From positions 62,001 to 126,000 of the forward strand of contig NZ_JAPKNI010000004.1 of assembly GCF_026343955.1 (NCBI RefSeq): 64,000 bases of DNA, in the 5' to 3' direction. Both the position numbers and the translations under genes were made by a program. The notes beneath the pieces were generated by a model. The model searched no databases, had not been told where the DNA came from, and saw only the letters and a program-made list of their open reading frames with translations. This stretch comes from Kaistia defluvii. GTDB lineage: Bacteria > Pseudomonadota > Alphaproteobacteria > Rhizobiales > Kaistiaceae. Below are positions 7,269 through 39,914 of the stretch, piece by piece (position 1 is the stretch's first letter; each line of letters starts with the position of its first letter).

Positions 7269-7297
7269 TTGCGGAACGCATGGGGAACAGGTATTCT
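7269..7297 (+). promoter_or_regulatory. lexA promoter
   Basis: TTGCGG (7269-7274) and TATTCT (7292-7297) are separated by 17 nt. One LexA box begins at the last -35 base and the other starts right after the -10 box, as expected for autorepression. Confidence 0.65.
7274..7288. promoter_or_regulatory. LexA operator 1 (perfect GAAC-N7-GAAC)
   Basis: GAAC at 7274-7277 and GAAC at 7285-7288 are separated by seven bases, an exact match to the alphaproteobacterial LexA box read on the other strand (GTTC-N7-GTTC). It covers the -35 end and spacer of the lexA promoter. Confidence 0.75.
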
Positions 7298-7312
7298 GTT
7301 CGCGTTTTGTAC
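7298..7312. promoter_or_regulatory. LexA operator 2 (one mismatch)
   Basis: GTTC at 7298-7301, seven bases, then GTAC at 7309-7312, one mismatch from GTTC-N7-GTTC. It abuts the -10 box; its start is 24 bp downstream of the start of the first box. Confidence 0.65.
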
Positions 7313-7409: not shown

Positions 7410-8114
7410 ATGCTCACCCGGAAGCAGTATGAACTCCTCATGTTCATCCAGGAGCGGCTCAAGGAAGCGGGCGTTCCTCCCTCTTTCGACGAGATGAAGG
7501 ATGCGCTGGATCTCCGCTCGAAATCCGGCATCCACCGCCTGATCAAGGCGCTGGAGGAACGCGGCTTCATCCGCCGGCTGCCCAACCGGGCCCGTGCGCT
7601 GGAAGTCGTGCGGTTGCCCGAGACGATGACGCCGGCCATGGCGCGGCCGAAGAAGCAGGCCTTCTCGCCCAGCGTGATCGAAGGCAGCCTCGGCAAGGTC
7701 CGCCCGATCGACGACATGCACGACGTGGCCGAGCCGGTGATCATCCCCGTCATGGGCAGGATCGCCGCCGGCGTGCCGATCTCGGCCATCCAGACCCAGA
7801 GCCATTCCATCACCGTGCCGCCGGAGATGCTGCGCGGCGGCGAGCATTTCGCGCTCGAAGTGCGCGGCGATTCGATGATCGAGGCCGGTATCCTCGACGG
7901 CGACACGGTGCTGATCCGCAAGAGCGACAACGCCGAATCCGGCGACATCGTCGTGGCACTGGTCGATGAGGAAGAGGCGACGTTGAAGCGGCTGCGGCGC
8001 AAGGGCGCCTCGATCGCGCTGGAGGCAGCGAACCCCGCCTATGAAACGCGGATCTTCGGGCCGGACCGCGTCCGCATCCAGGGCAAGCTCGTCGGGCTGC
8101 TGCGCACCTACTGA
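7410..8114 (+). CDS. lexA: LexA repressor, SOS regulator
   Basis: The 234-residue protein has the N-terminal winged helix-turn-helix (about 1-65), the self-cleavage site Ala120-Gly121, and the catalytic dyad Ser155 (in 'GDSMIEAG') and Lys193 (in 'ATLKRL'). On DNA damage RecA filaments trigger self-cleavage and release SOS genes. I start it at ATG 7410 ('[10 protein letters not shown]'), the standard alphaproteobacterial N-terminus, not at the upstream in-frame codons. Two LexA boxes lie at its promoter, about 100-135 bp before the start. Its 3' end overlaps the comEC stop tail to tail by 7 bp. Confidence 0.97.
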
Positions 8115-28849: not shown

Positions 28850-31800
28850 CTATACCAGCTCGACCTGCACGACGCCGCTGACGGCGCGGAGCGCGCCGGC
28901 GATCTGCGGGGAGAGCAGGTAGCGGCCGGGAAGCGCCACCTCGACCTCGCGCTGGCCCTTGTCGAGCATCAGCACGAGACTGACATCGCCGTCGCCCTTG
29001 CCGCGGGAGAGATGCCGCTCGATGCTCTTCAGCGGCTCCTCGCCGCGCATGAAGATGCGGAGCTGCTTCAGGCCGGTGGTCATCTGGTCGAGCGGCTTGA
29101 CGGTGACGATCCGGACGCTGATGCCTTCCGGGCGATCCTCGGCCGCGACCTGGACGATCACCGACTGGCCGGGCTCCAGCTTGTCGCGATACTCGTTCAG
29201 CGCCTCGGAGAACAGGATCGCCTCGAACTGGCCGGTCGGGTCGGAAAACTGGACGATGCCCATCTTGTTGCCCGACTTGGTCCGCCGCTCCTGCCGCGTC
29301 GTGACCGTGCCGGCCAGGCGCCCGGCGGCGGAGCCGAGGCGCACGGCTTCCGAAAACTCGGCCCAGGTCTGGACGCGCATCCGCTTCAGGATCGGCGCAT
29401 ATTCATCGAGCGGATGGGCGCTCAGATAGAAGCCGACGACGGCGTGCTCGCGCTGCAGCCGTTCCGACGGCATCCAGGGGTCGACGAAGGGCAGGGTCAG
29501 CGCCTCGCCCTGCCCGCCCCCGCCGAACAGCTCGTCCTGGCCGATCGCCTGCCCCTCGACCACGCGGCTGCCGATCGCCATGATCCGCTCGACGCCGGCC
29601 ATGACGCGGGCGCGGTCCGGGGTGAAGCCATCCAGCGCGCCGGCGCAGATCAGGCTTTCCAGCGTGCGCTTGTTGAGCACGCGCGGATTGATGCGGGCGG
29701 CGAAATCGGCGAGATCGCGGAACGGCCGGCTGCCGCGGCTCTCGACCAGATGCTCGACCGCCTGGCTGCCGACGCCCTTGATGGCGGCGAGCGAATAGAT
29801 GATGCGGCCCTCTTCGACGTCGAACACCGCGCCCGAGCGATTGACCGAGGGCAGCTCGACGGTGAAGCCGAGGCGCATCGCCTCGCGGCGGAAGTCGTTC
29901 AGCTTCTCGGTATTGCCCATGTCGAGCGTCATCGACGCGGCGAGGAACTCGACCGGGTAATTGGCCTTCAGATAGGCGGTCTGGTAGGCGACGAGCGCGT
30001 AGGCGGCCGCGTGGCTCTTGTTGAAGCCGTAGTCGGCGAACTTCGCCAGCATGTCGAAGATGGTGTTGGCGTGGTCCTTGGTCAGGCCCTGCTTGACGGC
30101 GCCGACGACGAAACGGTCGCGCTGGGCGTCCATCTCCGCCTTGATCTTCTTGCCCATGGCGCGGCGCAGCATGTCGGCTTCGCCGAGCGAATAGCCGGAC
30201 AGGATCTGCGCGATCTGCATCACCTGTTCCTGGTAGATGACGACGCCGTGCGTCTCCTTCAGCACGACCTCGATCAGCGGATGGTAATAGTCCGGCTTTT
30301 CCTCGCCATGCTTGCGCGCATTGTAGGTCGGGATGTTGTCCATCGGACCCGGGCGATAGAGCGCCACCAGCGCGATGATGTCCTCGAACCGGTCCGGCCT
30401 CATGCCCATCAGGGCCTTGCGCATGCCCTGGCTTTCAAGCTGGAACACGCCGACCGTCTCGCCGCGCGCCAGCATCTCGTAGGAAGGCTTGTCGTCGAGT
30501 GGAATGGCGGCGAGGTCGACGGTGATGCCGCGCTTGGCGATCAGCTTCACCGCCGTGTCGAGCACCGTCAGCGTCTTCAGGCCGAGGAAGTCGAACTTCA
30601 CCAGCCCGGCGCTTTCGACCCATTTCATGTTGAACTGGGTGACGGGCATGGTCGAGCGCGGATCGCGGTAGAGCGGCACCAGCGCATCGAGGCGCCGGTC
30701 GCCGATCACGATGCCGGCGGCGTGCGTCGAGGCATGGCGATAGAGCCCTTCGAGCTTCTGCGCCATGGCGAGCAACTGGGCGACGGCAGGATCCTCGTCG
30801 CGCGCCTCGCGCAACCTTGATTCATCGATCAGCGCCTGCGCCAGCGACACCGGATTGGCCGGATTCTGCGGCACCATCTTGCAGAGGCGGTCGACCTGGC
30901 CATAGGGCATCTGCAGCACGCGGCCGACGTCGCGCAGCACGGCGCGCGCCTGCAGCGTTCCGAAGGTGATGATCTGCGCCACCTGGGCGGCGCCGTATTT
31001 CTGCTGGACGTAGTCGATGACCTCGCCGCGCCGGTCCTGGCAGAAGTCGATGTCGAAGTCCGGCATCGAGACGCGTTCGGGGTTGAGGAAGCGCTCGAAC
31101 AGCAGCGCGAAGCGCATCGGGTCGAGATCGGTGATGGTGAGCGACCAGGCGACGAGCGAGCCGGCGCCCGAACCACGGCCGGGCCCGACCGGGATACCCT
31201 GCAGCTTCGCCCATTGAATGAAGTCGGCCACGATCAGGAAGTAGCCGGGGAACTTCATCTTCTCGATGACGGACAGCTCGAATTCGAGCCGGTCCCAATA
31301 ATCCTTGTCGGTCAGCCCCGGTGCCAGGCCATGGAAGGCGAGGCGCTTCTCCAGGCCGGTCCTGGCCAGGTCGCGCAGCGCCTGGACCTCGGCACGCTCG
31401 GCGGCCTCCGGCTCGGCATCGGCGCCGGCGAAGCGCGGCAGGATCGGCTTGCGCTTCATCGGCCGGTAGGAACAGCGCAGCGCGATCTCGACGGAATTGT
31501 CGGTCGCCTCGGGAAGGTCGGCGAACAGCGCCACCATCTCGGCGCGCGACTTGAAATAATGCTCCGGCGTCAGCCGCCGCCGCTTCTCGTCGGCGACCAC
31601 CGACCCCTCGGCGATCGCGACCAGCGCGTCATGCGCTTCATAGTCGTCGCGCTTCGGGAAGAAGGCCTCGTTGGTGGCCACCAGCGGCAGGCCAAAACGA
31701 TAGGCGAGATCGATCAGCTCGGGCTCGGCGCGCTGCTGCTCGATCGCCTGGTGGCGCTGCAGCTCGACATAGAGTCGGTCGCCGAGCAGGCCGGCCATGC

Positions 31801-32311
31801 GCTCGATCCGCTTCTCCGCGACGGCGCCCTGCCCGATCCGGATTGCCTGGTCGAGCGGTCCGGCGCCGCCGCCGGTCAGCACGATCAGACCCTCATGGGT
31901 TTCTTCCAGATCGCCAAACTTGATATGCGGCTTGTCGCCGGGATCCGTCTCCATGAAGGCGCGCGACACGAGGCGGACGAGGTTCCAGTACCCCGCCTCG
32001 TTCGAGGCGATCATGACCAGATCGGAAAGGTTCTTCTGGCCCGGGACCGGGCGACGCGACGGTTCGAACCCGTCGTCGAAGTGGACCGCCACCTGGCAGC
32101 CGATGATCGGCTGGATGCCGGCCTCGACCGCCCTCTCGGAGAATTCCAGCGCGCCGAACAGATTGCCGGTGTCAGTCAGGCCAAGCGCCGGCATCTTGTC
32201 CGCCGCCGCCAGCTTGATCAGCGATTTGAGCGGCAGAGCGCCTTCCAGCAGCGAATAGGCGGAGTGGACGCGGAGATGAACAAATCCGACGTCGCGAGCA
32301 ATGAGACTCAT
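28850..32311 (-). CDS. dnaE: DNA polymerase III alpha subunit (replicative, DnaE1)
   Basis: The 1153-residue C-family polymerase has an N-terminal PHP domain ('FVHLRVHSAYSLLEGALPLK'), the catalytic palm with 'PDFDIDFCQDRRGEVIDYV' (paired Asp), 'GFNKSHAAAYALVAYQTAYLKANYP', a helix-hairpin-helix region and a C-terminal OB fold ('GNKMGIVQFSDPTGQFEAILF'). Length and these features fit DnaE1, not the shorter error-prone DnaE2/ImuC. ATG 32311 is preferred because AGAGGA lies 8 nt upstream and 'MSLIARDVGFVHLRVHSAYS' is the expected N-terminus. A 32-codon SOS-box gene lies 82 nt upstream on the same strand with no obvious terminator between them. Confidence 0.95.
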   Translation of the reverse strand: MSLIARDVGFVHLRVHSAYSLLEGALPLKSLIKLAAADKMPALGLTDTGNLFGALEFSERAVEAGIQPIIGCQVAVHFDDGFEPSRRPVPGQKNLSDLVMIASNEAGYWNLVRLVSRAFMETDPGDKPHIKFGDLEETHEGLIVLTGGGAGPLDQAIRIGQGAVAEKRIERMAGLLGDRLYVELQRHQAIEQQRAEPELIDLAYRFGLPLVATNEAFFPKRDDYEAHDALVAIAEGSVVADEKRRRLTPEHYFKSRAEMVALFADLPEATDNSVEIALRCSYRPMKRKPILPRFAGADAEPEAAERAEVQALRDLARTGLEKRLAFHGLAPGLTDKDYWDRLEFELSVIEKMKFPGYFLIVADFIQWAKLQGIPVGPGRGSGAGSLVAWSLTITDLDPMRFALLFERFLNPERVSMPDFDIDFCQDRRGEVIDYVQQKYGAAQVAQIITFGTLQARAVLRDVGRVLQMPYGQVDRLCKMVPQNPANPVSLAQALIDESRLREARDEDPAVAQLLAMAQKLEGLYRHASTHAAGIVIGDRRLDALVPLYRDPRSTMPVTQFNMKWVESAGLVKFDFLGLKTLTVLDTAVKLIAKRGITVDLAAIPLDDKPSYEMLARGETVGVFQLESQGMRKALMGMRPDRFEDIIALVALYRPGPMDNIPTYNARKHGEEKPDYYHPLIEVVLKETHGVVIYQEQVMQIAQILSGYSLGEADMLRRAMGKKIKAEMDAQRDRFVVGAVKQGLTKDHANTIFDMLAKFADYGFNKSHAAAYALVAYQTAYLKANYPVEFLAASMTLDMGNTEKLNDFRREAMRLGFTVELPSVNRSGAVFDVEEGRIIYSLAAIKGVGSQAVEHLVESRGSRPFRDLADFAARINPRVLNKRTLESLICAGALDGFTPDRARVMAGVERIMAIGSRVVEGQAIGQDELFGGGGQGEALTLPFVDPWMPSERLQREHAVVGFYLSAHPLDEYAPILKRMRVQTWAEFSEAVRLGSAAGRLAGTVTTRQERRTKSGNKMGIVQFSDPTGQFEAILFSEALNEYRDKLEPGQSVIVQVAAEDRPEGISVRIVTVKPLDQMTTGLKQLRIFMRGEEPLKSIERHLSRGKGDGDVSLVLMLDKGQREVEVALPGRYLLSPQIAGALRAVSGVVQVELV

Positions 32312-32393
32312 CAGGCGATCCTCTTCCGCCTGATTTACGTCCAGAGCGCCGCGCCTGTCCATCACGCCGGCGCCTTTCCCCCGCTGAGGCGGA

Positions 32394-32492
32394 TCAGACG
32401 ACGTGGACGAGCAGATCCGACCAGAGGCTCACCATCGCGATGAACAGCATCAGGGCGCCCAGGGCGGCAACGTCACGGATATAGGCGGTCAT
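32394..32492 (-). CDS. 32-residue single-pass membrane microprotein with a LexA-controlled promoter
   Basis: A short frame from ATG 32492 to TGA 32394 encodes 32 residues: polar start 'MTAYIRDVAA', a hydrophobic core 'LGALMLFIAMVSLW', then 'SDLLVHVV'. This is one clear membrane helix with a charged N-terminal flank (Arg6, Asp7). 'AAGGAGATAGCC' directly before the ATG is a near-ideal ribosome site. The promoter upstream has TTGACG and a perfect LexA box in its spacer, so expression should rise in the SOS response. I do not recognise the sequence. The nearest functional precedent I know is SidA of Caulobacter, a 29-residue LexA-regulated membrane inhibitor of division; homology is not claimed. 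It lies directly upstream of dnaE on the same strand. Confidence 0.72.
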   Translation of the reverse strand: MTAYIRDVAALGALMLFIAMVSLWSDLLVHVV

Positions 32493-32522
32493 GGCTATCT
32501 CCTTATCGGACTGTCGATATCT

Positions 32523-32552
32523 CATATGTTCATGTTTTGTTCTCGTCGTCAA
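32523..32552 (-). promoter_or_regulatory. Promoter of the SOS microprotein
   Basis: On the minus strand TTGACG (32552-32547) is followed after 18 nt by CATATG (32528-32523). Transcription would start near 32516, leaving a leader of about 24 nt to ATG 32492. Confidence 0.5.
32528..32542. promoter_or_regulatory. LexA operator (perfect GTTC-N7-GTTC)
   Basis: GTTC at 32528-32531, seven bases, GTTC at 32539-32542. It fits the alphaproteobacterial LexA consensus exactly and sits between the -35 and -10 elements of the microprotein promoter. Confidence 0.78.
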
Positions 32553-32817
32553 GTCTTTCCGTCGGGACGGCATTTTGCCGCCTGTCGGCAGGCAGGAATG
32601 GCGGGATCACAAGGAGGCCGCGCGGCACGCGCAAGACGGCTGTGCATCAACCGTTCTTTCGGGACAAGGAGCCGCGCGGCGGGACGGGACGCGCTCGCAA
32701 TCCTGCGCCGTCGCGCTATGGTAGCGTTGCTGTGCCATTGCATGTTTGCAGGCGGCCGGATGCCGGCCGCCAACCGGCCAACAGTTCAAGATCGTTCCGA
32801 ACGATGGAGTTTTCCCA
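32553..32817. other. Intergenic region between divergent SOS microprotein and DUF1269 genes
   Basis: No further gene is visible. A perfect hairpin with arms ggcggccgg (32751-32759) and ccggccgcc (32763-32771) and a 3-nt loop lies about 47 nt before the DUF1269 start codon, in its presumed leader. No T-run follows it. Confidence 0.5.
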
Positions 32818-33369
32818 ATGAGCGACCTCGTCTTTATCGCCTTCCCGTCCGAGCAGAAGGCCGAGGAAGTGCGCGACCGCGTCCTCGAGATGCAGAAGGA
32901 ATATCTGATCGAGCTCGGCGACGCGGTGGTCGCGGTGCGCGACGCCAATGGCCGCGTCAAGCTCAACCAGCTGGTGAACACCACGGCGACCGGCGCCGTC
33001 TCCGGCGCCTTCTGGGGCACGCTCATCGGCTTCATCTTCCTGATGCCGCTGGTCGGCACGGCGATCGGCGCCGCTTCCGGCGCACTCGGCGGCAAGCTCA
33101 CCGATGTCGGCATCAACGACCAGTTCATGAAGGATGCGGCGGAGTCGCTGGCGCCGGGCAATGCCGGCCTGTTCCTGCTGATCCGCAAGATGACCACCGA
33201 CAAGGTCCTGGCGGACCTGCGTGGCGTCGGCGGCACGGTGATGCGCACCTCGCTCACCGACGAGCAGGAAAAGGCGCTGCGTGAGGCGCTGGCCGATCAT
33301 GCCGCCGCGCCGGCCGAGACCACCGCTCCCAGCGAGCCGGCCGCCCCCGCCGGCGGCGCCACGAGCTAA
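32818..33369 (+). CDS. DUF1269 family membrane-associated protein
   Basis: The 183-residue protein matches the DUF1269 family: N-terminal 'SDLVFIAFPSEQKAEEVRDRVLEMQKE', a central Gly/Ala-rich hydrophobic hairpin ('TGAVSGAFWGTLIGFIFLMPLVGTAIGAASGALGG' region, residues about 60-95) and a C-terminal domain ending in a Pro/Ala-rich tail. The glycine-rich helices suggest membrane association. Function is unknown. GGAG lies 8 nt before ATG 32818. It is followed after 34 nt by a metallophosphoesterase gene on the same strand, perhaps cotranscribed. Confidence 0.75.
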   Translation: MSDLVFIAFPSEQKAEEVRDRVLEMQKEYLIELGDAVVAVRDANGRVKLNQLVNTTATGAVSGAFWGTLIGFIFLMPLVGTAIGAASGALGGKLTDVGINDQFMKDAAESLAPGNAGLFLLIRKMTTDKVLADLRGVGGTVMRTSLTDEQEKALREALADHAAAPAETTAPSEPAAPAGGATS

Positions 33370-36908: not shown

Positions 36909-37544
36909 TCAACCTTCCCTTGCGGCGAAGCTTCCTTCTGCGCCCACGACGAGCGCCATGCGCACGAGTTCCGACAGGCTCGATGCACCCATCTTGGTCA
37001 TCACATGCGCGCGGTAGATCTCGACGGTGCGCGGGCTGATATCGAGGTCATGCGCGATCCGCTTGTTGGCATGGCCGGCAACAAGCCCGTCGAGCACCTG
37101 CTGCTCGCGGTTGGACAGCGCCGCCAGGCGCTGCCGGATCGCGACCCGCTCCTGTCCCTGCTCGCGGGTCGTGCCGTGACGGGCGAAGGCGGAGCGGACG
37201 GCGCGAAGCATCGCTTCGTCGTCGAACGGCTTCTCCATGAAGTCGACCGCGCCGCTCTTCATGGCCTCGACGGCGAGGGCAATATCGGCATGCCCGGTAA
37301 TGACGATGACCGGCAGCGTTATGGCCTGCGCCCTGAGACGCTTCAGCAGTTCGATACCATTGATCTCCGGCATCCGCACGTCGGTGACGATGCACCCATC
37401 CGGGAGAGCCGGCGCAATGGCCAGGAAAGCTTCTGCGGAAGGGTATGTCGCCACCGCGATGTCGGCGCTTTCGAACAGGAAGGCGAGCGAATCGCGCGCG
37501 GCATCGTCATCGTCGATGACATGGACCCTACGTTCAGTGGACAC
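36909..37544 (-). CDS. fixJ: Response regulator FixJ
   Basis: The 211-residue NarL/FixJ-type regulator has a receiver domain with Asp55 ('[16 protein letters not shown]'), 'VITGHAD' and 'MEKPFDD', and a C-terminal LuxR-type helix-turn-helix ('[22 protein letters not shown]', '[13 protein letters not shown]'). Phosphorylated FixJ activates fixK in low oxygen. The start is GTG 37544, inside the end of fixL (11-bp overlap), with GGAGGCGGAGC just upstream; the longer in-frame extension is fixL read out of phase. Confidence 0.92.
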
Positions 37545-39045
37545 GCTCCGCCTCCTCGATCCGCACGGCCGGCACGGTGAAATTGAACACGGTGCCGCCG
37601 CCGGGATTGCCCTCGGCCCAGATCCGCCCGCCATGCGCCTCGACGATGGTCCGGCAGATCGACAGGCCGACGCCCATGCCATTCTGCTTGGTCGTCAGGA
37701 AAGGCTGGAACAGCCGCGCCATCACCTCGGGCGCAATGCCGGTCCCCCGGTCCGAAACCTTCACCCGGATCATGTCGCCCGCCTCGACCTCGCTGGAAAT
37801 GACCAGATCCCTACCGCCGCCCTCCTCCATAGCGTCGATGGCGTTGCGCATCAAATTGACCAGCACCTGCTGGATCTGGACGCGATCGCCGAACAGGAGG
37901 TCGACGTCGGGAGCGAGCTCGAACCGAATGCGGATGCCCTTCTCCTTGGCGCCGACGAGGGCCAGCGCGCTCGCCTCCTCGATCAGCCGCGCCAGGCTCT
38001 CCACCCGCTTCTCGGTCTCGCCGCGCGCGAGGAAATCGCGCAGGCGGCGAATGATCTCGCCAGCCCGCAGCGCCTGGTCCGCCGCGCTTTCCAGCGCGGC
38101 CCGAACCTTGGGGATGTTTTCCGGCGTCGCGTTTTCCAGCAGCCGGCGCGAGCCGCGCAGATAATTGGCGACCGCCGAGAGCGGCTGGTTCAGCTCATGC
38201 GCCAGCGTCGAGGCGATCTCGCCCATCGCGGTGACACGCGAAATATGGACCAGTTCCGACTGCAGTTCCTGCAACCGCGCCTCCGTCTCCTGCCGCTCGG
38301 AAAGATCGCGGACGAAGCCGGTGAAGAATCGCTGCTCGCCGGAATGCATCTCGCCGATCGCCAGTTCCATCGGAAAGGTCGAGCCATCCTTGCGCTCGCC
38401 CACGACGATGCGGCCGATGCCGATGATCCGCCGCTCGCCCGTTTTCCTATAGCGCTCGAGATAGCCGTCATGCTGCTCGCGGTAGGAAGACGGCATCAGG
38501 AGCTTGACATTGCGCCCAAGGATCTCCGCCGCCGTGTAGCCGAACATGCGCTGCGCGGCCGCGCTGAAGGACTGGACCAGCCCCGCCTCGTCGATGACGA
38601 TCATCGCATCGGGAATGGTCTCGAGGATCGAACGAAGATGCGCCTCGCGATAGCGCAGGTCCGCGGCCGCCGTGGCGAGTTGCCCCCGGACGCGGTGCAG
38701 CCACTCGCCGAGTGCGACAAGGCCGCCGCCGATCACCGCAAAGGCGACGCCATTCCAGACATGCGAGGTGCCGAGCCCGTCCGCCTGGCCATAGATCGCC
38801 ATGCCGAGCCCCAGGCTGGCGACGATCGCCACGATCCCGGGCCAGAGCCCGCCAATGCCCGCCGCGACGATGACCGCTGGAATGTAGAGCAGGAACGTCG
38901 CCTGCGCACGGAAGACGGGGTGCAGCGACAGCCAGGATGCGGCGATGACCAGACAGGAGACAAGCAGGAAGGAGAGCAAAGCCCGTCTCAGGCCGGGGAT
39001 AGGCCAGGAAAAAATCTTCATGGCCGAGCCACGCGCCTCCGACAT
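37534..39045 (-). CDS. fixL: Oxygen-sensing histidine kinase FixL
   Basis: The protein has about four N-terminal membrane helices (residues about 20-120), a heme PAS domain, and HisKA plus HATPase domains. The heme-pocket residues known from Bradyrhizobium FixL can be aligned: the proximal His (His200 there) in '[10 protein letters not shown]', Arg206 in the same stretch, and the oxygen-gating Arg220 in 'IIGIGRIV'. The phospho-His lies in '[16 protein letters not shown]'. Low oxygen should switch on autophosphorylation. The start is uncertain: 39045 and 39021 both lack a clear ribosome site. The coding end overlaps fixJ by 11 bp. Confidence 0.9.
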
Positions 39046-39118
39046 TCGCCCGCGGCGCCGATGGCCGCCGCTCCGCGCAAAGCAAACAAGCAGACTACCT
39101 CCCGCCCCGCCGCCGAGC

Positions 39119-39140
39119 ACCTACGGGATATCCCTTAGGT
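39119..39140. promoter_or_regulatory. Dyad resembling a FixJ operator upstream of fixK
   Basis: Half-sites ACCTACGGGAT (39119-39129) and ATCCCTTAGGT (39130-39140) form a 22-bp dyad with one mismatch, about 75 bp before the fixK start codon and between fixL and fixK. The 'CCCTTA' and 'TAGG' elements recall FixJ-binding sites at rhizobial fixK promoters. The assignment rests on position and memory. Confidence 0.5.
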
Positions 39141-39215
39141 ACATGATCTGAATGTCGGCGCAGCCGTCTTCATCCTATTCCAGCGTTCATACCGATCGAA
39201 TGCGAGGAAGACGAC

Positions 39216-39914
39216 ATGCTGAGCGCCGTTGCCACTGCCCGGACCATCCTTCCGGAAATGAGAGACCGCGCGGCTGGCATCGTCGTCAAGGGCTCGCGTT
39301 TCGCGCCGTCGAACTACATCGGCCTGATGGGCGTGACGATGCACTTCGAACGCGGCGCCGAGATCGTCGCCGAGGAGGACCCGGCGGAGTATGTCTACCA
39401 GGTCATCAGCGGCACGGTGCGGACCTGCAAGCTGCTCAGCAATGGCCGCCGCCAGATCGGCGCCTTCCTCATGGAGGGCGACTATTTCGGCATGGAGGCG
39501 CGGGCCGTTCACTGCTTCGCCGCCGAGGCGATCACGGACACGACCATCCACATGATCAACCGGAACACCGCATTCGCCGCGGCCGGTCGCGACCCGGAGA
39601 TCGCCCGCGCGCTCTGGGACATCACGGCGCGCAGCCTCGATGCCTGCCAGCAGCATTCGCTCCTGCTTGGCCGCAAGACGGCGCTCGAGAAGATCGGCTC
39701 GTTCCTGACCGAGATGGCCGAGCGTCAGGGCAGCCACGTGGAAATCGACCTGCCCATGTCCCGACAGGACATCGCCGATTATCTCGGCCTGACGATCGAG
39801 ACCGTCTCGCGCACCATGACCCAGCTGGAATGCGCCGGCACCATCGCGCTGCCGACCTCACGCCATGTGCTGGTGAAGCGGCGGCACGAACTGGCGCGTC
39901 TCAGCGCCTGCTGA
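39216..39914 (+). CDS. fixK: FixK-type CRP/FNR transcriptional regulator
   Basis: The 232-residue protein has the cyclic-nucleotide-type beta-roll and the C-terminal winged helix with 'MSRQDIADYLGLTIETVSRTMTQLE', where E..SR matches the FNR/FixK recognition helix for TTGAT half-sites. An N-terminal Cys cluster like that of FnrN/FNR is absent, so oxygen control should come through FixLJ, as for rhizobial FixK. Targets usually include cbb3 oxidase and other microaerobic genes, none of which lies in this window. 'GAGGAAGACGAC' before ATG 39216 supports the start. Its stop is only 4 bp from the convergent cysW stop. Confidence 0.88.
   Translation: MLSAVATARTILPEMRDRAAGIVVKGSRFAPSNYIGLMGVTMHFERGAEIVAEEDPAEYVYQVISGTVRTCKLLSNGRRQIGAFLMEGDYFGMEARAVHCFAAEAITDTTIHMINRNTAFAAAGRDPEIARALWDITARSLDACQQHSLLLGRKTALEKIGSFLTEMAERQGSHVEIDLPMSRQDIADYLGLTIETVSRTMTQLECAGTIALPTSRHVLVKRRHELARLSAC

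What the first reader, a model, noticed from the sequence alone, without database searches (positions are those of the whole stretch)
32394..32552. LexA-box-controlled 32-residue single-helix membrane microprotein upstream of dnaE
Seen: a 32-codon frame (32492 to 32394, minus strand) with a near-ideal ribosome site, one membrane helix, and a promoter (TTGACG, 18 nt, CATATG) with a perfect GTTC-N7-GTTC box in its spacer. Known: LexA of alphaproteobacteria binds this motif, and Caulobacter SidA is a 29-residue LexA-controlled membrane inhibitor of division. Inference: this is an SOS-induced microprotein that may act on division or another membrane target after DNA damage. It is below usual gene-calling size and would be missed in most annotations.
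Basis: partly seen in the sequence, partly recalled or inferred. Interest (0 to 1): 0.9.

Follow-up and report, generated by a model that had tools for sequence, protein, structure and literature searches.

The report
SOS-controlled SidA-family division-brake microprotein
A 32-residue membrane protein hidden just before the DNA polymerase gene dnaE of a Kaistia bacterium looks like a distant relative of SidA, the tiny protein that stops Caulobacter from dividing when its DNA is damaged, and the same gene pair recurs in many other Alphaproteobacteria.

Summary
The 32-codon frame (32492-32394, minus) has a ribosome site and a GAAC-N7-GAAC LexA box between TTGACG and CATATG. It is a real gene: 26 of 28 family genomes keep it before dnaE (25 with 32 codons, one 33), 25 of 26 with the box in place, under purifying selection (pN/pS 0.44; 1.7 and 1.6 out of frame). 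In Caulobacter sp. SLTY and its family, the gene at the same place behind the same kind of box is a 29-residue single-helix protein, SidA's published length. The two sets align without a gap from the start codon (hhalign E 2.2e-7). A profile search of 289 class genomes, blind to position, gave ten hits at E 1e-3 or better, five from families outside the profile; all ten lie just before dnaE behind a box. An order search hit 40 of 150 genomes at E 0.01. So this is a distant SidA-family member, LexA-repressed, probably holding FtsW/I/N inactive after DNA damage (inferred). New is the family's reach and its link to dnaE. C. crescentus sidA itself was not fetched; function was not testable.

The parts
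32394..32492 (-). SidA-family microprotein gene, 32 codons plus stop, one predicted membrane helix (residues 2-31)
   Evidence: Frame and ribosome site; 26 of 28 family genomes keep it before dnaE; pN/pS 0.44; profile match to the Caulobacteraceae-like set E 2.2e-7, 2.3e-7 with all frames; one helix, pLDDT 96, single-sequence model
32528..32542 (-). LexA box GAACAAAACATGAAC (GAAC-N7-GAAC)
   Evidence: Exact match; exact box in place in 25 of 26 family loci; same class of box before imuA-, uvrA/ssb- and SRAP-like genes in this genome
32547..32552 (-). -35 element TTGACG
   Evidence: Sequence; TTGAC in 25 of 26 family loci
32523..32528 (-). -10 element CATATG, overlapping the last base of the box
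   Evidence: Sequence; CATA follows the box in many family loci; not called by a strict scan
32498..32504 (-). Ribosome site AAGGAGA, 5 nt before the ATG
   Evidence: Sequence
28850..32365 (-). dnaE, replicative DNA polymerase III alpha; probably the second gene of the same transcript (GTG 32365 or ATG 32362)
   Evidence: Pfam PHP, DNA_pol3_alpha, finger, HHH_6, OB; a 500-aa piece scores best with PRK05673 (DNA polymerase III alpha), well above the error-prone model PRK05672; a second DnaE lies elsewhere in the genome, about 3 kb behind an imuA-like gene
7410..8108 (+). lexA, the presumed repressor gene, in the same window
   Evidence: TIGR00498 over its cut-off at G000:C16:69410-70108; Pfam LexA_DNA_bind and Peptidase_S24
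7274..7288 (+). Box GAACGCATGGGGAAC upstream of lexA; a one-mismatch second box at 7298-7312

Best explanation
The frame is the Kaistia relative of sidA at the sidA address. Shown here: a selected 32-codon gene with one hydrophobic helix, a conserved promoter with the LexA box inside it, profile-level homology and shared position with the 29-residue Caulobacter protein, and dnaE directly behind. Inferred: LexA sits in the promoter and blocks it; after DNA damage RecA-driven LexA cleavage frees it; the peptide inserts in the inner membrane and, like SidA, holds the late divisome complex FtsW/FtsI/FtsN inactive so that cells do not divide over damaged DNA. Because dnaE follows 28-31 nt later, the same induced transcript probably also tops up replicative polymerase, so one LexA switch brakes division and supplies the replicase.
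For: Coding and selection: 26 of 28 family genomes keep it before dnaE, 25 at exactly 32 codons and one at 33; pooled pN/pS 0.44 over 91 Kaistia pairs (pairs not independent), 1.68 and 1.56 in the two wrong frames; 51% of differences at third positions. Regulation: exact box 47-54 nt before the start in 25 of 26 (sd 1.9); of the four other GAACAAAA boxes among the 100 places listed, three stand before imuA-, uvrA/ssb- and SRAP-like genes. Homology to SidA: of 55 dnaE genes found in the Caulobacteraceae-like family 30 upstream regions were examined, and 29 hold a 28-31 aa helix frame, 23 of these exactly 29 aa; Caulobacter sp. SLTY and three Caulobacter MAGs have it with box and dnaE. Gap-free register from the start codon, shared R6, D/E7, A10, L11, F17, V/I18, M20: offset-0 score 21.6, best other offset 3.7, 0 of 20000 column permutations as good; hhalign Prob 93.5, E 2.2e-7, 2.3e-7 with all 26 and 29 frames. 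Profile search of 289 class genomes: 10 of 10 hits at E 1e-3 or better lie just before dnaE behind a box (five from families outside the profile); 0 of 18 weaker hits has dnaE in its 3-kb locus. Published role of SidA: 29 aa, inner membrane, SOS-induced, acts on FtsW (PMC4211646, passages). FtsW is present in this genome.
Against: A direct BLASTP of the window protein with the Caulobacter protein finds nothing; homology is seen only with profiles, and with the N-terminal seven columns set aside the register score is matched by 60 of 20000 permutations. Identity of the Caulobacter 29-aa frame with published sidA is inferred from length, box, genus and place: PMC1839093 gives dnaE as CC1926, PMC10769358 gives sidA as CCNA_02004, and adjacency follows only from my reading of the two numbering systems. 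The C. crescentus sequence was not fetched and the original SidA paper is not held. The residues that SidA needs for FtsW are unknown to me, and the Caulobacter FVWM core is FIAM here. Alone in the window the box is close to chance. The family is not universal: 10 of 100 class regions sampled have box plus helix frame, and 110 of 150 order genomes have no hit at E 0.01.
Confidence: 0.8

Rival explanations
1. Leader peptide: the box controls dnaE, and the small frame is translated only to tune dnaE translation or read-through; the peptide itself has no job.
For: It sits right before dnaE in nearly all members examined; Caulobacter is reported to have other small leader frames (PMC4117421, passages).
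Against: Amino-acid-level selection and gap-free homology across families. The distance to the box is fixed (47-54 nt) while the distance to dnaE varies (67-208 nt to the conserved dnaE motif, 25 loci). Aquibium L213 and genome G475 (L277) keep box and peptide with no dnaE in the stretch held behind them. No terminator-like site in 32200-32800.
Confidence: 0.06
2. SOS-induced membrane-damaging peptide of the TisB or DinQ sort, slowing metabolism by depolarising the membrane rather than by touching the divisome.
For: Same size class, SOS-type control and one helix; DinQ is described as a toxic single-membrane SOS peptide (PMC3567139, abstract start in listing).
Against: Conserved column pattern shared with the Caulobacter set. 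The helix is not amphipathic (hydrophobic moment 0.05-0.24). TisB and DinQ are held by antisense RNAs (TisB recalled); none was looked for here.
Confidence: 0.08
3. SidA-family member whose target has shifted to another membrane protein in Hyphomicrobiales (overlaps the best explanation except for the target).
For: The C-terminal half differs (WSDLLVHVV here, CSVAYLAA there) and the Caulobacter tryptophan at position 19 is alanine in the window protein.
Against: The N-terminal half and F17 are kept; FtsW is present. No positive evidence for another target.
Confidence: 0.15
4. Chance frame beside a box that serves dnaE alone.
For: The frame is short, and the box is close to chance in the window alone.
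Against: Length and frame kept in 26 genomes, pN/pS 0.44; 10 of 10 good profile hits in class genomes lie at this spot.
Confidence: 0.01

Closest known systems
SidA of Caulobacter crescentus (CCNA_02004)
   Same: Tiny single-helix protein, SOS control, and in named Caulobacter relatives a box about 50 nt before the start, dnaE directly behind, and gap-free homologous residues 1-23
   Different: 32 residues instead of 29; different C-terminal half; found by profile only; one box here, often two in the Caulobacteraceae-like set; function untested
DidA of Caulobacter crescentus
   Same: Small single-helix damage-induced division inhibitor acting on the FtsW/I/N complex (PMC4211646, passages)
   Different: 71 residues, SOS-independent (DriD), binds FtsN; no sequence link tested
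YneA (Bacillus), SosA (Staphylococcus)
   Same: SOS-induced division inhibitors, YneA acting on FtsW (listing abstracts and titles of PMC13396833 and PMC6851548)
   Different: Larger proteins of other phyla (size recalled); analogues by role only, no sequence comparison made
TisB / DinQ of Escherichia coli
   Same: SOS-induced single-helix peptides
   Different: Thought to act on the membrane itself, not on division proteins (recalled; DinQ abstract start)

Membership tests
SidA family | About 29-residue protein with a single membrane helix | tested here: met
   32 residues, helix 2-31 at pLDDT 96 (single-sequence model), hydrophobic core; membrane location itself not tested
SidA family | Sequence homology to the Caulobacter protein | tested here: met
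   hhalign Prob 93.5, E 2.2e-7, 2.3e-7 with all frames; register test; position-blind profile search. Pairwise BLASTP negative
SidA family | LexA operator in its promoter | tested here: met
   GAACAAAACATGAAC between -35 and -10, exact box kept in 25 of 26 family loci; protein binding not tested
SidA family | Same gene neighbourhood (before dnaE) as in Caulobacter | tested here: met
   Caulobacter sp. SLTY L216 and Caulobacter MAGs L187, L188, L203; 29 of 30 loci examined of the Caulobacteraceae-like family
SidA family | Identity of the Caulobacter 29-aa frame with the published C. crescentus sidA | tested here: inconclusive
   Length, genus, box and locus numbering agree; the C. crescentus sequence was not fetched
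SidA family | Induction by DNA damage through LexA | not testable with these tools
   Needs RNA or protein data
SidA family | Blocks division through FtsW | not testable with these tools
   Needs expression and interaction tests; FtsW present
TisB/DinQ-type SOS membrane toxins | Amphipathic or pore-forming peptide with an antisense RNA | tested here: inconclusive
   Low hydrophobic moment; antisense RNA not looked for

The most novel reading that the evidence does not exclude
sidA-dnaE is an old, shared operon of Alphaproteobacteria in which one LexA-controlled transcript both stops division and renews the replicative polymerase; SidA, studied in Caulobacter, is the visible member of a family too short for usual gene calling, and it is the SOS division brake of much of the Hyphomicrobiales.
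Probability: 0.5. Interest if true: 0.72.

Novelty: new member of a known kind. Interest (0 to 1): 0.62.

Why it matters
In the passages I could read SidA is described only from Caulobacter, and seven frames of the kind found here match no Pfam or NCBIfam family usefully. If the reading holds, one known checkpoint protein becomes a family found in many Hyphomicrobiales and several other families of the class, with a usual address (behind a LexA box, before dnaE) at which it can be looked for in genomes where it is too short to be called. It offers a candidate SOS division inhibitor for a large group of bacteria, and may join division arrest and replicase supply in one transcript, which can be tested directly.

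Tried and rejected
Pfam and NCBIfam scans of seven microproteins gave no usable match (one Pfam hit at E 0.18). f122 was first guessed to be Caulobacteraceae; a family search found only 4 genomes there. A holdfast marker (NF037936, accession recalled, accepted by the tool) then rang in the Caulobacter vibrioides control and over its cut-off in 2 of 289 class genomes, both f65; 7 others matched weakly, two of them f122. So f65 is called Caulobacteraceae-like, not named by a call. Direct BLASTP of the window and Caulobacter proteins: nothing. The first script on the f65 loci found no dnaE because my motif was too strict; repeated with tblastn. Three of 29 matches (L025, L028, L029) lie away from dnaE and were dropped from the family count; genome G011 had no match and G004 only a chance one. 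The 43-codon upstream start was rejected. An HMM scan of the 100 class regions found 7 of 223 frames at 5 bits or more against 0.35 per shuffle, so some class members are recognised by box and place only; the frame printed for L115 is not the SidA-like one.

Choice of rows: the f65 frames were picked by hand from the frames printed (29 of 30 loci; L167 had none). The register test used the f65 frames of exactly 29 aa plus three named loci (26 sequences; 6 of the 29 f65 frames left out). A1 is 21 of 26 family frames, A2 is 22 sequences of my choice and leaves out two divergent 29-aa frames (L154, L169); with all 26 and all 29 frames the result is the same, E 2.3e-7. A3 is 28 chosen sequences.

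Literature: nine searches of the held open-licence library listed no paper whose title or abstract start concerns SidA outside Caulobacter or a sidA-dnaE pair; unrelated genes and a plant that share the name SidA aside. I did not read the listed papers in full. Modell 2011 and da Rocha 2008 are not held, so prior mention there cannot be excluded. Of the papers cited I saw passages only or listing abstracts.

Full report
What is there. On the minus strand of the window, TTGACG (32552-32547), an 18-nt spacer holding GAACAAAACATGAAC (32542-32528), CATATG (32528-32523), AAGGAGA (32504-32498) and ATG (32492) lead into a 32-codon frame ending at 32394; dnaE begins 28 or 31 nt further on. The window lies in G000:C16.

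Is it a gene? A protein search of 28 family genomes gave matches at E 1 or better in 27. Of the 29 matches, 26 lie before dnaE, one per genome; three are chance. Of the 26 frames 25 are exactly 32 codons and one is 33; 25 have an exact GAAC-N7-GAAC 47-54 nt before the start and TTGAC upstream, and in the 26th the contig begins there. Among 14 Kaistia loci (91 pairs, not independent) pS is 0.49 and pN 0.22, ratio 0.44; reading the same DNA in the two other frames gives 1.68 and 1.56; half of all differences are at third codon positions. Close pairs agree (L006/L007: six synonymous, no amino-acid change), though L008/L012 are more even in raw counts (14.5 synonymous, 16.5 not; pS 0.57, pN 0.24). 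M1, A10 and F17 never vary in the 21 sequences of A1, and D7, A9, S25 nearly never.

Is the box a LexA box? In this genome the pattern matches 127 times against 67 for its reversed control, so many matches are chance. I fetched 16 of them, chosen by spacer. Three are recognisable SOS loci: an imuA-like gene (NCBIfam ImuA, below its cut-off) with a second DnaE about 3 kb on (C12:289519), the uvrA/ssb intergenic region (C17:86659) and an SRAP-like gene (C12:131018; Pfam match below cut-off). Among the 100 places that one search lists, five boxes read GAACAAAA; besides the window's own, three are these loci and one (C12:376027, L033) has no gene that I recognised. lexA itself is in the window at 7410-8108 with one exact box and one with a single mismatch upstream. 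Naming GAAC-N7-GAAC (GTTC-N7-GTTC) as the operator follows the Caulobacter literature (PMC9578287 and PMC12700426, passages).

Going outwards. A dnaE search of 289 class genomes found 271; I fetched the upstream stretch of 100 of them. Seventeen of 100 have an exact box in either orientation. Ten of 100 have GAAC-N7-GAAC followed by a hydrophobic frame of 24-60 codons that ends before dnaE; 50 shuffles of all 100 gave none. In the family whose sampled genomes carry the holdfast protein HfaD over the cut-off, dnaE was found in 55 of 60 genomes. Of the 30 loci returned, 29 hold a 28-31 aa helix frame before dnaE, 23 of them exactly 29 aa, and 28 of 30 have a box under a loosened pattern within 450 nt. 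A pattern scan of named genomes returned 42 loci. Twenty-one have box, helix frame and dnaE in order, among them Caulobacter sp. SLTY and three Caulobacter MAGs (29 aa), Jiella pelagia, Prosthecomicrobium, a Tepidamorphaceae, a Stappia, a Hellea and two Marinicaulis MAGs. One (Aquibium) has box and frame but no dnaE. The other 20 were not identified by a call: two look like recA by eye, one precedes an error-prone-type DnaE, and two end shortly after the box.

Homology to SidA. Published SidA is a 29-residue SOS-induced inner-membrane protein that acts on FtsW (PMC4211646, passages). C. crescentus dnaE is CC1926 (PMC1839093) and sidA is CCNA_02004 (PMC10769358); that they are neighbours is my inference from the two numbering systems, and agrees with the Caulobacter loci above. 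The Kaistia-family and Caulobacter-family columns align without a gap from the start codon: score 21.6 at offset 0, at most 3.7 at any other offset from -8 to 8, and 0 of 20000 column permutations as good; with only columns 8-29, 60 of 20000. hhalign gives Prob 93.5, E 2.2e-7 over columns 1-23, and E 2.3e-7 when all 26 and all 29 frames are used. BLASTP of the single pair gives nothing. A profile of 28 chosen sequences searched against 289 whole class genomes hit 27 at E 0.1. The ten at E 1e-3 or better, from five families, are all directly before dnaE behind a box; of the 18 weaker matches none has dnaE in its roughly 3-kb locus. Families f1, f65 and f122 were in the profile, so the independent hits are f5 (three genomes) and f11 (two). 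In the order, 40 of 150 genomes hit at E 0.01 or better, five of them of the own family and 35 of 15 other families. I examined 27 of these loci, two of them of the own family: 24 have dnaE just behind on the same strand and 21 have a box under a loosened pattern (22 and 19 of the 25 outside the own family). L277 (two boxes) and L273 (one) have no dnaE in the stretch held, and L260 has neither. The weaker hits were not examined.

How it works. Shown: a selected gene, an SOS-type promoter, a single helix in a structure model, profile homology and position. Inferred from SidA: release of LexA after damage, insertion in the membrane and arrest of the FtsW/FtsI/FtsN complex in an inactive state (the model of PMC4211646, passages). 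FtsW is present. dnaE lies close enough to share the transcript, with no terminator-like site found between, so damage would raise the replicative polymerase as well; that step is inference. Against a leader-peptide role: the frame keeps its distance to the box and not to dnaE (sd 1.9 against 28.6 nt in 25 loci), and two lineages keep box and peptide with no dnaE seen behind.

Verdict. The finding is right, and its analogy turns out, on profile evidence, to be homology. I file it as a new member of a known kind; what is new, as far as the held library shows, is how far the SidA family reaches and its standing link to dnaE.

Noticed in passing
L213 (Aquibium sp. ELW1220), L277 (G475): SidA-like 28-residue frames behind one or two boxes with no dnaE in the stretch behind; in L277 an ORF of 416 codons follows and, by eye, a LolC/LolD-like pair precedes.
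   Followed up: partly
L152-L181 (Caulobacteraceae-like family): Often two boxes in tandem, starts about 16-18 nt apart, often with GAAT as the last half of the first; Kaistiaceae usually have one.
   Followed up: no
window 7274-7312: Two boxes upstream of lexA, one exact and one with a single mismatch on the other strand, suggesting self-regulation of lexA.
   Followed up: partly
L079, L090, L093, L136, L143: Box plus helix frame before dnaE whose peptides score weakly or not at all with the profile: very divergent members or independent inventions at the same address.
   Followed up: partly
window 36909-39914: Sensor kinase with PAS domains, response regulator and a Crp-type regulator side by side, like a FixL-FixJ-FixK set (name recalled).
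   Followed up: partly
window 32746-33369: Divergent DUF1269 glycine-zipper protein gene upstream of the microprotein.
   Followed up: partly
   Followed up: no
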